The notes under the pieces are model-generated. The model ran no database searches, had not been told where the DNA came from, and was given only the letters and a program-made list of their open reading frames with translations. DNA of 64,000 bases from Cupriavidus taiwanensis LMG 19424 (GTDB lineage Bacteria; Pseudomonadota; Gammaproteobacteria; Burkholderiales; Burkholderiaceae): contig NC_010528.1 of NCBI RefSeq assembly GCF_000069785.1, positions 3,352,912-3,416,911 on the forward strand, in the 5' to 3' direction. Positions 43,747 through 49,826 of this stretch are shown piece after piece (the first letter of the stretch is position 1; the number at the start of each line of letters is the position of its first letter). A program made the translations under genes and the position numbers.

Positions 43747-43871
43747 CGGGTCTCCTTGCGTCAGTCTCTTGTCATTGCTCTGCGGTGCGGGCGGGCAGGC
43801 CCGCATTGACGCTACCCGGAGTTTGGATAAAGATCGGTGCCCGGTCTTGATCCCGCATGACAGGTGATTTG

Positions 43872-44978
43872 ATGCCACGCGCCACTCCGCCCGATGGCGA
43901 TGCCAGTGCCGGTGGTATGCAGGCCGGCACCGGGTCTGACACCACATCCGGCACCACATCCGGCACCGTCTCGCTCGCCTACCTTCGCGCCGTGCTCGAC
44001 CACGGCGAGCGCCAGGGCATTGCCCCGGCCGAGCAGCTGTGCGCCGTCGGCGTGCCGCCGGCGTTGCTCGACGCAGGGGCGCATGCGCAGACCGCCACGC
44101 GCATTCCCGGCGCAACCTATCTCGCGCTGCTCGACTGGCTCGAGCAAGCCACCGGCGATGCCGATGTCGGCCTGCGCGCCGGCGCCGCCTTCGCGCCCCG
44201 CCACTATGCCGAGATGGGCTACGTGGTGCTGACCACGCCCACCGTGCGCGACGCCATCCTGCAGGGCATCCGCTATGAAGTGCTGGCCAACGACATCGGC
44301 GGCACGCACCTGGCCGAAACGCCGCAGTCGGCCTGCATGACGTGGGCAGCGCGGCACGGCCCGCTGTCGCGCCATGCGCACGAGCTGCATATGGCCACGT
44401 GGGTGGTGTTCGCGCGCTGGCTGATCGGCGACCAGCATGTGGCGACGCAGGTGGAGTTTCCCCACGCCGCTCCGGCCGATACCCGGCTGCATGCCGAGGT
44501 GTTCGGCTGCCCGGTGGTCTTCAACGCCGGGCGCCATGCCATGCATATCGAACGCGCCCTGCTGGACCTGCCGTCGCTGCAGGCCGATGCCGGCATGCAG
44601 GCGCAGATGACCCGCATCGCCGATTCGCAGCTGCAGCAGATCGTGCCCGCGGGCGCCGACGCGCTGGCGCAGGCGCGCGCCTGCATCCGCGCGCGGCTGC
44701 CGCAGGGCGAGGTGCCGATCGCCGACGTCGCCGCGCAACTGGGCCTGCCGGTGCGCACGCTGCAGCGGCGGCTGCAGGCACAGGGCATCAGTTATTCACA
44801 GCTTGTGGATAACGTACGGCAGGCGCTGGCGCGGCAGTACCTGGCCGAGCCCGGCCTGAGCCTGGCGCAATGCGCGATGCGGCTCGGCTATTCCGAACAG
44901 AGCGCCTTCACCCATGCGTTCAAGCGCTGGACCGGTGAAACGCCGCACGGCTGGCGCCGCAAGGGCCGGACCGCCTAG
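43872..44978 (+). CDS. AraC-family regulator with arabinose-binding-like N-terminus (OruR/VirS type)
   Basis: 368 residues. The N-terminal effector domain ('YLRAVLDHGERQGIAPAEQL', 'YAEMGYVVLTTPTVRDAILQGIRY') belongs to the Arabinose_bd class. The C-terminal double helix-turn-helix is 'IADVAAQLGLPVRTLQRRLQAQGIS' and 'LSLAQCAMRLGYSEQSAFTHAFKRWTGETPHGWRR'. ATG at 43872 has AGGTGA upstream; ATG at 43857 adds five residues. The same regulator class (VirS) controls the mymA monooxygenase operon of Mycobacterium tuberculosis, which resembles the genes that follow here. Confidence 0.9.
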   Translation: MPRATPPDGDASAGGMQAGTGSDTTSGTTSGTVSLAYLRAVLDHGERQGIAPAEQLCAVGVPPALLDAGAHAQTATRIPGATYLALLDWLEQATGDADVGLRAGAAFAPRHYAEMGYVVLTTPTVRDAILQGIRYEVLANDIGGTHLAETPQSACMTWAARHGPLSRHAHELHMATWVVFARWLIGDQHVATQVEFPHAAPADTRLHAEVFGCPVVFNAGRHAMHIERALLDLPSLQADAGMQAQMTRIADSQLQQIVPAGADALAQARACIRARLPQGEVPIADVAAQLGLPVRTLQRRLQAQGISYSQLVDNVRQALARQYLAEPGLSLAQCAMRLGYSEQSAFTHAFKRWTGETPHGWRRKGRTA

Positions 44979-46893: not shown

Positions 46894-47784
46894 ATGAAGG
46901 ACTTCCGTAACAAGGTTGCCGCGATCACCGGCGCCGGCTCGGGCATCGGCCGCGCGCTGGCGCTGGCCCTGGCACGCGAGGGCTGCCAGCTGGCGCTGTC
47001 GGACCGCAACGAGGCCGGGCTGGCGCAGACTGCGGCGCAGGCCATGGCCGCGGCACCCCATGCGCGCGTCACGCAGCACACCGTCGACGTGGCCGACCGC
47101 GCCGCGGTCTATGCGTGGGCCGCTGCCGCCGCCGACGCGCACGGCCGCGTCAACCTGATCTTCAACAACGCCGGCGTGGCGCTGTCCAGCACGGTCGAAG
47201 GCATGAGCTACGACGACCTGGAATGGATCATCGGCATCAACTTCTGGGGCGTGGTCTACGGCACCAAGGCCTTCCTGCCCTACCTGCAGGCCAGCGGCGA
47301 CGGCCACGTGGTCAATACCTCGAGCATCTTCGGCATCTTCGCCCAGCCCGGCATGGGCGCCTACAACGCCAGCAAGTACGCGGTGCGCGGCTTTACCGAA
47401 TCGCTGCGGCAGGAGCTGGACCTGATGGACTGCGGCGTGTCGGCCACCACCGTGCACCCCGGTGGCATCAAGACCAATATCGCGCAGGCCAGCCGTGTCT
47501 CGGCCAGCGTCAACGGCTTCCTGGTGCGCGACGCGCAGCACGGCAAGGACGAGTTCGAGAAATTCTTCATTACCTCGCCCGACAAGGCCGCGCGCGTGAT
47601 CCTGGAGGGCGTGCGGCGCAACCGCCGGCGCGTGCTGATCGGGCCCGACGCCTACGCCGCCGACGCCATGGCGCGGCTGCTGCCCGCCGCCTACCAGGCG
47701 CTGGTGGTGCGCGAGACGCGCCGCAAGCGCGACCTGGGCAACGTGGTGGCGCCCGCTTCGGTGGGCCAGGGAGAGCGCCCGTGA
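46894..47784 (+). CDS. Short-chain dehydrogenase/reductase
   Basis: 296 residues. Cofactor motif 'AAITGAGSGIGRALALALA' (T-G-x3-G-x-G), 'NNAGVAL', active-site Ser in 'VNTSSIFGIF' and 'YNASKYA' (Tyr-x3-Lys). Asp in 'ALSDRNE' after strand 2 suggests NAD(H). It probably interconverts an alcohol and the ketone used by the monooxygenase. GGAAGGAG precedes the ATG. Its stop overlaps the next gene's GTG start (GTGA). Confidence 0.92.
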   Translation: MKDFRNKVAAITGAGSGIGRALALALAREGCQLALSDRNEAGLAQTAAQAMAAAPHARVTQHTVDVADRAAVYAWAAAAADAHGRVNLIFNNAGVALSSTVEGMSYDDLEWIIGINFWGVVYGTKAFLPYLQASGDGHVVNTSSIFGIFAQPGMGAYNASKYAVRGFTESLRQELDLMDCGVSATTVHPGGIKTNIAQASRVSASVNGFLVRDAQHGKDEFEKFFITSPDKAARVILEGVRRNRRRVLIGPDAYAADAMARLLPAAYQALVVRETRRKRDLGNVVAPASVGQGERP

Positions 47785-48743
47785 ACCGCCTGGCGATGGA
47801 AGCCGACGCGGCGCTGCTGGCGCCGCCGGGCACGCTGACGCGCTGGTTCGGCCAGGGCCGCGTGGGGCTGTTCAGCCTGTCGCGCGCGACGCTGGCGCAG
47901 CGCCATGCGCTGCCGGCCTCGCGCTGGGTGCGCGTGCTCGATGCGATGGTGCACTACACCGACGAAGGCCCCGCCGACGGCGAGACCCTGGTGCTGATCC
48001 ACGGCTTCGGCGCGTCGCTGCATACGTGGCAGGGCATCGTGCCGGCGCTGGCGCAACGCTATCGCGTGCTGCGGCTGGACCTGGCCCCGTTCGGCCTGAC
48101 CGGGCCGCTGCGCGATGCGCGCGGGCGCATCGAGACCATGGACGTGCACCGCTACCGCGACTTCATCGATGCCTTCCTGGCCGCGGTGAACGTGCGCCGC
48201 GCCAGCATCATCGGCAATTCGCTGGGCGGGCTGATCGCGTGGGACCTCGCGGTGCGGCGGCCGGGTGCGGTCGACAAGCTGGTGCTGATCGATGCCGCCG
48301 GCTTCCCGATGAAGCTGCCGATCTACATCGACCTGTTCCGCCATGCGCCGGTGCGCTGGTCGGCGCCGTGGCTGCTGCCCGAGTGCATCATCCGCGCCGC
48401 CACGCGCGACGTCTACGGCGACGCCTCGCGCGTGCCGGAGGCCACCTTCCGCCGCTACGTGGACTTCTTCTATGCCGAAGGCAGCCGCGAGGCGGTCGGC
48501 AAGATGGTGCCGAAGCTCGACTTCGCCCAGCTCGACACCCACCTGCTCGGCAGCGTGCGGGCGCCCACGCTGGTGCTGTGGGGCGAGCGCGACCGCTGGA
48601 TTCCGCCCGCGCACGCGCAGGCCTTCGCCGAGCGCATCCCCGGCGCGCAACTGCGCCGCTACGCGGGGCTGGGCCATGTGCCGATGGAAGAAGACCCGCA
48701 ACGCGTGGCCGCAGACCTGCTGCCATTCCTGGACCGCCAATGA
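47781..48743 (+). CDS. Alpha/beta hydrolase
   Basis: 320 residues. 'VLIHGFGASLHTWQGIV' gives the oxyanion loop, nucleophile Ser lies in 'IIGNSLGGLIAWDLA' (about 145), acid in 'VLWGERDRWIPP' and His in 'YAGLGHVPMEEDP'. Cap region 'MKLPIYIDLFRHAP' is hydrophobic. Likely an esterase that cleaves the ester made by the monooxygenase. Start GTG at 47781 overlaps the SDR stop; an ATG at 47796 is an alternative. Translational coupling supports a joint pathway. Confidence 0.9.
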   Translation: MNRLAMEADAALLAPPGTLTRWFGQGRVGLFSLSRATLAQRHALPASRWVRVLDAMVHYTDEGPADGETLVLIHGFGASLHTWQGIVPALAQRYRVLRLDLAPFGLTGPLRDARGRIETMDVHRYRDFIDAFLAAVNVRRASIIGNSLGGLIAWDLAVRRPGAVDKLVLIDAAGFPMKLPIYIDLFRHAPVRWSAPWLLPECIIRAATRDVYGDASRVPEATFRRYVDFFYAEGSREAVGKMVPKLDFAQLDTHLLGSVRAPTLVLWGERDRWIPPAHAQAFAERIPGAQLRRYAGLGHVPMEEDPQRVAADLLPFLDRQ

Positions 48744-48789: not shown

Positions 48790-49665
48790 ATGATGCCAGT
48801 CCGCCGCGACGTGCATCCCCACCTGCCGCCGGAGCGCATCAGCGACTGGCACGAGCGGGGCCGCCACGTCACCCATTTCCTCAACACGCTGTCGATCTTC
48901 TTCCCGGCCGGGGAACGCTTCTTCATGGACAGCGTGCGCAACTACCGCGACCAGGTGAAGGACCCCGAGCTGAGCCGCGCCATCGCCGGCTTTATCGGCC
49001 AGGAAGCGATGCACACGCGCGAGCACATCCTCTACAACCGGCTCATGGAAGACGCCGGCCTGCCCGCCGCGGCGCTGGACCGCGCGGTGTGGAAGCTGCT
49101 GGACATGTTGCGCAAGATCCTGCCCAAGTCATGGCAGCTGGCGCATACCATCGCGCTGGAGCACTACACCGCGATGCTGGCCGACGGCGTGCTGAAGGAC
49201 GTGCGCCACCTGGGCGCGGACTCTCAGGCCGGCTACCGGCAGGTGTGGACCTGGCACGCGCTGGAGGAAACCGAGCACAAGGCGGTGGCCTACGATGTCT
49301 GGAACACCGTGATGAAGCCGGGCCCCTACCGCTACTTCGTGCGCACCTTCACCATGCTGACCACCACGGTGACGTTCTGGGCCATGGTGTTCGTGTTCCA
49401 TATCGCGCTGGTGATGGGCGACAAGGGCTGCCGCAACAAGCTGAGCGGGTTTGGCACCGCGCTGCGCTTCCTGTGGGCGTCGCCCGGCGCGCTGCCGCGC
49501 ATGATCCCGGAGTGGCTCAGCTACTTCCGCCCCGGCTTCCATCCCTGGGACGACGACAACCGCGCCGAGCTGGCCCGCATCGATCCGCTGGTGCGGGAAA
49601 TCGAAGACACCGCGCGCGCCGCCGGCGTCTCCACCCGGGCGCCTTCGCTGCGGGGGACGGCATGA
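48790..49665 (+). CDS. Ferritin-like di-iron protein (annotated family: predicted metal-dependent hydrolase, PF10118-like)
   Basis: 291 residues, mainly helical. A full carboxylate-bridged di-iron ligand set can be read off: E42 ('PAGERFFMD'), E72-x-x-H75 ('GQEAMHTREH'), E124 ('TIALEHYTAML') and E160-x-x-H163 ('ALEETEHKAVAYD'). This E...ExxH...E...ExxH order is that of rubrerythrin-like and oxygenase four-helix bundles. A hydrophobic helix ('TTTVTFWAMVFVFHIALVMG', about 195-214) may bind membrane or substrate. AAGGAGA precedes ATG 48790. The rubredoxin start overlaps its stop, suggesting electron supply for O2 chemistry rather than hydrolysis. Confidence 0.85.
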   Translation: MMPVRRDVHPHLPPERISDWHERGRHVTHFLNTLSIFFPAGERFFMDSVRNYRDQVKDPELSRAIAGFIGQEAMHTREHILYNRLMEDAGLPAAALDRAVWKLLDMLRKILPKSWQLAHTIALEHYTAMLADGVLKDVRHLGADSQAGYRQVWTWHALEETEHKAVAYDVWNTVMKPGPYRYFVRTFTMLTTTVTFWAMVFVFHIALVMGDKGCRNKLSGFGTALRFLWASPGALPRMIPEWLSYFRPGFHPWDDDNRAELARIDPLVREIEDTARAAGVSTRAPSLRGTA

Positions 49666-49826
49666 CCATCTGGCAGTGCCGAATCTGTGGATTCGTCTAT
49701 GAAGAAGCGCTCGGCATGCCCGAGCACGGCATCGCGCCCGGCACACCGTGGGGCGCGGTCCCGCCGGAATGGCGCTGCCCGGACTGCGGCATGGCGAAAG
49801 CGGATTTCGACATGGTTGCGCTATAG
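49662..49826 (+). CDS. rubA: Rubredoxin
   Basis: A 54-residue one-iron electron carrier. The four Cys ligands are C6 and C9 ('WQCRICGFVYEE') and C39 and C42 ('WRCPDCGMAKADF'), normal rubredoxin spacing, with the expected acidic centre. The ATG overlaps the di-iron gene stop (ATGA), so the two proteins are made together. Partners are probably that di-iron protein and a rubredoxin reductase not found in this window. Confidence 0.95.
   Translation: MTIWQCRICGFVYEEALGMPEHGIAPGTPWGAVPPEWRCPDCGMAKADFDMVAL

What the first reader, a model, noticed from the sequence alone, without database searches (positions are those of the whole stretch)
48790..49826. Translationally coupled di-iron four-helix protein and rubredoxin: a probable O2-using redox pair mislabelled as a hydrolase
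The upstream protein shows a complete E42, E72xxH75, E124, E160xxH163 set, the ligand pattern of ferritin-like di-iron enzymes. The rubredoxin gene begins inside its stop codon (ATGA). Rubredoxins are known electron donors to di-iron proteins. The family is usually called predicted metal-dependent hydrolase; the sequence favours an oxidase or oxygenase fed by the rubredoxin, in an operon with a Baeyer-Villiger monooxygenase, SDR and esterase.
Basis: partly seen in the sequence, partly recalled or inferred. Interest (0 to 1): 0.75.

Follow-up and report, generated by a model that had tools for sequence, protein, structure and literature searches.

The report
Mislabelled di-iron oxygenase with rubredoxin partner
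A bacterial protein that databases call a hydrolase looks instead like an oxygen-using di-iron enzyme related to the AurF and CylC oxidation catalysts; it sits in an operon with the other enzymes of a carbon-chain-cutting pathway and, in some lineages only, with a small electron-carrier protein.

Summary
MH (48790-49665) and a rubredoxin (49662-49826) overlap as ATGA. MH is PF10118, 'predicted metal-dependent hydrolase'. This matches the AurF/CmlI seven-ligand set and the QExxH/HxxDExxH motifs printed for CylC halogenases. AlphaFold2 gives a confident helical fold (pLDDT 96); all 50 VIA matches shown are R2-like proteins. Profiles link PF10118 to AurF (94.5%), not to R2, PaaA/C, DUF455 or reversed controls (at most 1.6%). 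'Hydrolase' is very probably wrong. In 61 of 80 named loci MH lies near a Baeyer-Villiger-type monooxygenase and an SDR, and in 32 of 80 near an alpha/beta hydrolase; a mycobacterial plasmid has the same set. I propose that MH is the C-H hydroxylase of a subterminal-oxidation module (inferred). The rubredoxin pairing is real but patchy: 19 of 35 Cupriavidus orthologues, 2 of 78 hits in a Pseudomonadota sample; 16 of 44 MH-bearing genomes there show no rubredoxin. It is a local donor at most, not a family requirement. Iron, ligand geometry, activity and electron transfer are untested.

The parts
43857..44978 (+). AraC-family regulator, 258 nt upstream of the BVMO gene; probable regulator of the operon
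   Evidence: Pfam PF12625 130 bits, PF12833 77.6 bits; homologues upstream in L051 and L056; an AraC-type gene also lies beside MH in L047
45237..46832 (+). BVMO-type flavin monooxygenase (531 aa), fingerprint FEGECFHSQHWN at residue 173
   Evidence: PF00743 53.7 bits; best NCBIfam model is a BVMO (PtlE type), 213 bits but below its cut-off of 1100; fingerprint
46894..47784 (+). Short-chain dehydrogenase/reductase (296 aa), TGAGSGIG, NNAG, YNASK
   Evidence: PF00106 157.7 bits; motifs
47781..48743 (+). Alpha/beta hydrolase (esterase-type), overlaps the SDR stop by 4 nt if it starts at GTG 47781 (ATG at 47796 also possible)
   Evidence: PF00561 97.9 bits; possible starts and spacing
48790..49665 (+). 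MH: PF10118 'metal-dependent hydrolase', here assigned as an AurF/CylC-type ferritin-like di-iron oxygenase. Putative ligands E42, E72, H75, E124, H156, E160, H163; second-shell Q71, E159
49662..49826 (+). Rubredoxin (54 aa), two CxxCG motifs (AlkG2 type by the rule in PMC8918992), start overlaps MH stop (ATGA)
   Evidence: PF00301 71.2 bits; sequence; PMC8918992 passage

Best explanation
MH is a soluble, R2/AurF-type ferritin-like di-iron oxygenase, not a hydrolase. Two irons are held by E42, E72, H75, E124, E160, H163 and probably H156, with Q71 and E159 as second-shell partners. Reduced to Fe(II)2, it activates O2 and oxidises a C-H bond of an aliphatic or acyl substrate to a secondary alcohol. 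The SDR next door oxidises the alcohol to a ketone, the BVMO inserts oxygen to give an ester and the alpha/beta hydrolase cuts the ester: a subterminal-oxidation (chain-splitting) module. In the C. necator-type operon the rubredoxin, translationally coupled through the ATGA overlap, supplies electrons to MH; other lineages use another donor. Shown here: sequence, conservation, predicted fold, profile link to AurF, gene clustering. Inferred: iron, O2 chemistry, substrate, reaction order, electron donor.
Confidence: 0.5

Rival explanations
1. MH is an AurF/CylC-type di-iron enzyme with other chemistry: halogenation, N-oxygenation, desaturation or C-C cleavage of an acyl or amine substrate.
For: Its nine conserved residues (E42, Q71, E72, H75, E124, H156, E159, E160, H163) correspond to the nine reported for CylC/NocO, a halogenase of acyl-ACP, with E for D at one place. 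AurF relatives do N-oxidation. BtrH-like proteins lie near MH in four loci and PaaI thioesterases in two of them.
Against: No carrier-protein or PKS gene among the nine window proteins scanned; the recurrent partners BVMO, SDR and esterase fit an alcohol product better than a chloride or nitro product.
Confidence: 0.27
2. MH is a rubrerythrin-like peroxidase or O2 reductase that uses rubredoxin and protects the flavin monooxygenase from peroxide.
For: Rubredoxin is a donor to rubrerythrins (recalled); rubrerythrin-type peroxidases are described in an abstract listed (PMC3317640). Flavin monooxygenases leak peroxide (recalled).
Against: The profile link is to AurF-type oxygenases; rubrerythrin gave one weak Pfam hit, E 1.2, for one of four MHs scanned. 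The catabolic partners are specific, and most MH loci have no adjacent rubredoxin. No rubrerythrin profile was compared.
Confidence: 0.1
3. The label is right: MH is a metal-dependent hydrolase acting on the ester or lactone made by the BVMO.
For: The Pfam name; sources name homologues 'metal-dependent hydrolase'; a hydrolytic step belongs to the pathway.
Against: An alpha/beta hydrolase already fills that role in the same operon; fold and conserved residues are those of redox di-iron proteins; a search for six names and accessions of the family found one paper and no experiment on the label.
Confidence: 0.05
4. The rubredoxin is not MH's donor but a passenger, or serves another enzyme such as an alkane hydroxylase elsewhere.
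For: Patchy presence; one copy (G327/L143) lost a metal-ligand Cys while the MH keeps its motif; all 60 Cupriavidus genomes searched have a rubredoxin match somewhere, so donors exist without the operon copy.
Against: Overlap conserved in the rubredoxin-bearing clade; the rubredoxin label needs only 2 changes on the MH tree; the same pairing, with 1 nt between the genes, in a distant lineage.
Confidence: 0.3

Closest known systems
AurF/CmlI/Dob3-type ferritin-like di-iron N-oxygenases (PF11583)
CylC/NocO dimetal halogenases
   Same: QExxH, HxxD/EExxH and two further Glu: the same nine positions (PMC12101540 passages)
   Different: E159 for Asp; NocO acts on an ACP-bound acyl chain; no CylC sequence was compared here
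Ribonucleotide reductase R2, R2lox, acyl-ACP desaturase
   Same: Fold class and E, ExxH, E, ExxH order
   Different: No profile signal against R2 (1.6%); no third His ligand in these (recalled)
AlkB/AlkG/AlkT alkane hydroxylase with rubredoxin
   Same: Rubredoxin-fed C-H oxidation is the proposed working principle; the operon rubredoxin has the two CxxCG motifs of AlkG2
   Different: AlkB is an unrelated membrane protein (recalled); MH is ferritin-like by prediction
Subterminal alkane oxidation with BVMO and esterase (Thalassolituus, Acinetobacter)
   Same: Alcohol dehydrogenase, BVMO and esterase steps (PMC6304351, PMC13055320 passages)
   Different: For growth on n-C28 the specific subterminal monooxygenase 'was not identified' (PMC6304351); MH is the candidate proposed here. 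Whether Thalassolituus has an MH was not tested

Membership tests
Ferritin-like (R2-type) di-iron oxygenases/oxidases | Long-helix R2/ferritin-like fold | tested here: met
Ferritin-like (R2-type) di-iron oxygenases/oxidases | E, ExxH, E, ExxH ligand set on four helices, conserved | tested here: met
   132 of 132 gap-free rows; residues lie in helices 25-50, 59-88, 113-136, 147-174
Ferritin-like (R2-type) di-iron oxygenases/oxidases | Ligands meet in one site | not testable with these tools
   Model coordinates not available to scripts
Ferritin-like (R2-type) di-iron oxygenases/oxidases | Two irons and O2 activation | not testable with these tools
   Needs protein
AurF/CmlI N-oxygenases (PF11583) | Passes the family model | tested here: not met
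   No PF11583 match in Pfam scans at E <= 0.001 or E <= 10; related family, not a member
AurF/CmlI N-oxygenases (PF11583) | Third His ligand (HxxxExxH) and seven-ligand set | tested here: inconclusive
   Six of seven positions align, H156 included; E124 is off by one residue in the profile alignment
CylC dimetal halogenases | QExxH and HxxDExxH plus two Glu | tested here: inconclusive
   Q71 in 127 of 132 rows; position 159 is Glu, not Asp, in all 132; no direct sequence comparison with CylC
CylC dimetal halogenases | Halogenation of an acyl chain | not testable with these tools
   Needs protein
Rubredoxin (PF00301) | Family model and two CxxCG iron-binding motifs | tested here: met
   71.2 bits against cut-off 23; CRICG and CPDCG
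Type I Baeyer-Villiger monooxygenase | Two Rossmann motifs and the FxGxxxHxxxW fingerprint (consensus recalled) | tested here: met
   GSGFAG, GTGASA, FEGECFHSQHWN; last residue N where P or D is usual (recalled). Activity not tested
Metal-dependent hydrolase | Hydrolase fold or activity | tested here: inconclusive
   No hydrolase seen among the 50 rows shown by each fold search, which does not exclude one; activity untested

The most novel reading that the evidence does not exclude
PF10118, a family of at least several thousand proteins filed as hydrolases, is an undescribed class of AurF/CylC-like di-iron oxygenases, and its BVMO-linked members are the missing soluble hydroxylases of subterminal alkane/acyl oxidation; the C. 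necator branch has a dedicated rubredoxin-driven version, a rubredoxin-fed ferritin-like C-H oxygenase.
Probability: 0.33. Interest if true: 0.85.

Novelty: new variant of a known kind. Interest (0 to 1): 0.62.

Why it matters
The name 'hydrolase' steers people wrong: one paper took a PF10118 group as a candidate lanthipeptide protease (PMC8960859 passage). If MH is a di-iron oxygenase, a large unstudied family (5,462 homologous clusters found in one search) joins an enzyme class known for C-H and N oxidation. The first step of subterminal oxidation, stated as not identified in Thalassolituus on n-C28 (PMC6304351), gets a named and testable candidate with its partner genes. The operon also offers a natural electron-donor candidate: in the passages read, related ferritin-like oxygenases were driven by NADH plus FAD (DnfA) or NADH plus PMS (BioE).

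Tried and rejected
SDR-MH gene fusion in L042: tblastn suggested it, Pfam on the 817-aa frame shows MH only, so rejected. mymA operon as the closest relative: ten papers listed, none read, no link followed. R2 family as nearest sequence relative: my first R2 alignment was faulty (4 of 29 rows lacked the R2 motif, wrong-strand reads); rebuilt with 30 rows that all carry it, MH against R2 gives 1.6%, and the PaaA/C (19) and DUF455 (15) alignments were rebuilt as well. PDB sequence search with MH alone or with its profile: nothing at a useful E-value; a ribonucleotide reductase chain appears at E 0.78. NCBIfam: no family for MH. BFVD: best rows are viral ribonucleotide reductases, none at E <= 0.001. 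Automatic gene calling in GC-rich loci gave shadow ORFs; the neighbour counts in this report come from tblastn. First rubredoxin pattern was wrong and found none; corrected. A motif search for GxSxG in the alpha/beta hydrolase was run out of frame; the motif GNSLG is visible in the translation. That rubrerythrin or hydrolase folds are not among the fold matches shown is not proof against them.

Literature: a search for six names and accessions of the family (PF10118, COG3687, IPR016516, UCP07580, PIRSF007580, Metal_hydrol) found one paper in the held open-access library; context searches listed none that I could see assigning this family to di-iron proteins (25 of 109 listed). Subscription papers are mostly not held.

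Full report
What is there. The window lies in a 6.48 Mb genome of three contigs (G000). It is nameless here; MH identity (97% to C. necator SHC 2-3; 92% to C. lacunae) points to Cupriavidus. MH runs 48790-49665 and the rubredoxin 49662-49826, sharing ATGA. Upstream on the same strand are an AraC regulator, a BVMO-type flavin monooxygenase, an SDR and an alpha/beta hydrolase. Gaps between neighbours, from AraC to rubredoxin, are 258, 61, -4, 46 and -4 nt, so BVMO to rubredoxin reads as one operon. A convergent MerR-type gene follows.

The ligands. From homologous ORFs in the loci then held I aligned 133 rows (131 distinct; the window's gene three times; one row a fragment with gaps). E42, E72, H75, E124, H156, E159, E160, H163 and D169 are identical in the other 132; H79 in 131, H125 in 129. 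Q71 is Q in 127 and E in 5, the five being the subgroup L032-L036. A thinned alignment of 69 rows, down to 18% identity to the window protein, has the same residues invariant.

Which di-iron family. I built alignments from Burkholderiales genomes: AurF PF11583 (20 of the 21 loci L161-L181; L176, whose slice came out empty, dropped), R2 PF00268 (30), PaaA/C PF05138 (19) and DUF455 PF04305 (15). hhalign of MH to AurF: 93.2% and 94.5%, E 7.6e-8 for a single comparison. MH to R2 1.6%, PaaA/C 0.4%, DUF455 0.1%; to the four reversed profiles 0-0.6%. AurF to R2, PaaA/C and DUF455: 8.1, 0.1 and 4.0%. So MH is closer to AurF than AurF is to the other di-iron families tested, though these alignments are shallow. 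Columns matched: E42-E, Q71-D, E72-E, H75-H, H156-H, E159-D, E160-E, H163-H; E124 is off by one, H125 facing the AurF-family glutamate. The AurF profile finds CmlI and AurF in the PDB. The residues stated for AurF (D135, H139, E196, D226, H230) and for CylC/NocO (QExxH, HxxDExxH, nine residues, each essential for chlorination in NocO) come from passages of PMC12101540; the 3-His/4-carboxylate set is stated for DnfA, AurF and CmlI in PMC9478400 (passages). MH keeps the nine CylC positions, with E for D at 159. MH does not match PF11583: it looks like an AurF-type protein but is a family of its own.

The neighbours. In 80 named loci fetched with the MH profile, homologues of the window BVMO and SDR both lie within 5 kb in 61, of the alpha/beta hydrolase in 32, of the rubredoxin in 2. 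That set was capped at the best 80 and is dominated by Cupriavidus, Paraburkholderia, Burkholderia and Pseudomonas. In Pseudomonas L063 the divergent neighbour is an alpha/beta hydrolase by Pfam. In 59 other loci, 55 with MH recovered by tblastn, 8 have the BVMO and 7 both; one of each is a same-genus orthologue, and four of the flavoproteins are only 24-26% identical. The BVMO-type fingerprint is nevertheless present in the 10 of 10 loci checked outside the genus (L045, L047, L118, L125, L126, L278, L284, L285, L295, L296). Arrangements differ (MH-hydrolase-BVMO-SDR in L118 and L125; MH with AraC and divergent SDR-BVMO in L047 and L296), which points to function rather than frozen order. On the Mycolicibacterium chubuense NBB4 plasmid MH is followed by an SDR, three flavoproteins 37-45% identical to the window BVMO (two with the fingerprint) and an alpha/beta hydrolase not detectably similar to the window's. 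On an Acinetobacter haemolyticus plasmid from oil-contaminated soil MH lies near a 2Fe-2S protein, P450 and FAD-oxidoreductase set, with a transposase gene between. Other MHs lie beside unrelated genes, so the family need not have one function.

The rubredoxin. In 60 genomes of the genus 35 have an MH orthologue at 75% identity or more, and 19 of these have the rubredoxin directly downstream by coordinates (tally). Of 30 of these loci read, 15 have an intact one; in a sixteenth, G327/L143 (counted among the 19), the copy has lost one metal-binding cysteine. On a tree of 40 MHs the label needs 2 changes; one origin is not ruled out. All 60 genomes have a rubredoxin match somewhere. In 299 Pseudomonadota genomes, 44 have MH, 114 rubredoxin, 28 both; Fisher p 0.0003, not corrected for kinship or genome size; in 16 of the 44 none was found. 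The neighbourhoods of all 78 over-cut-off MH places (77 loci) were scanned for a rubredoxin pattern: two have one beside MH, the window and G015/L047; in two loci (L019, L034) the contig ends just after MH. In L047 the MH stop and the rubredoxin start lie as TGAAATG, beside AraC, SDR and BVMO; its MH is 25-30% identical to the window's. In 148 genomes of that order 5 have a relative of the L047 MH, six places in all, and only G015 itself showed the rubredoxin. So the pairing is recurrent but rare: a specialisation, not a requirement.

How it most likely works. Rubredoxin or another donor reduces the di-iron site; O2 binds; a C-H bond is hydroxylated; SDR, BVMO and hydrolase finish the chain split. 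The pathway logic (alkane, secondary alcohol, ketone, ester, acid plus alcohol) is as described in PMC6304351 and PMC13055320 (passages); PMC6304351 says that for n-C28 a specific subterminal monooxygenase was not identified. My confidence: di-iron ferritin-like protein 0.9; O2-using oxidase or oxygenase 0.8; C-H hydroxylase of a subterminal module 0.4; rubredoxin as donor in this operon 0.6.

Novelty. In the held open-access library one paper names PF10118, as a candidate protease group (PMC8960859 passage). I found no paper that assigns the family to di-iron enzymes (searches; only part of the listing of 91 was shown); subscription papers are mostly not covered.

Noticed in passing
L143 (G327) about 2373-2537: Operon rubredoxin with one metal-ligand cysteine lost while the MH next to it keeps its motif; may be decay after a partner switch.
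   Followed up: partly
L032-L036: A short PF10118 subgroup (MH of about 256-278 aa) with EExxH instead of QExxH; in L032 it sits with a weakly LolA-like protein, an FtsX/MacB permease and an ABC ATPase, suggesting a different role.
   Followed up: partly
L128 3231-5230 and L340 8383-9646: MH near an Abi-alpha protein and a DUF445 protein in two different genera (a Nevskia MAG and Marinobacter).
   Followed up: no
L337, L338, L274, L279: BtrH-like proteins near MH in four loci, with PaaI thioesterases in two of them: hints at an acyl-thioester substrate for some members.
   Followed up: partly
L283, L128, L341; genomes G078 and G032: Tandem MH paralogues; two genomes, G078 and G032, carry eight PF10118 matches each.
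   Followed up: no
L338 14156-15136 (Mycobacterium intracellulare plasmid): An R2-like ligand-binding oxidase gene lies a few genes from MH: two different R2-fold oxidases near each other.
   Followed up: no
G000:C1:79857-80219 and many Burkholderiales genomes: A weak AurF-like match (about 18-34 bits, mostly below the cut-off) in ORFs of roughly 280-540 aa recurring across the order; possibly another unassigned di-iron family.
   Followed up: no
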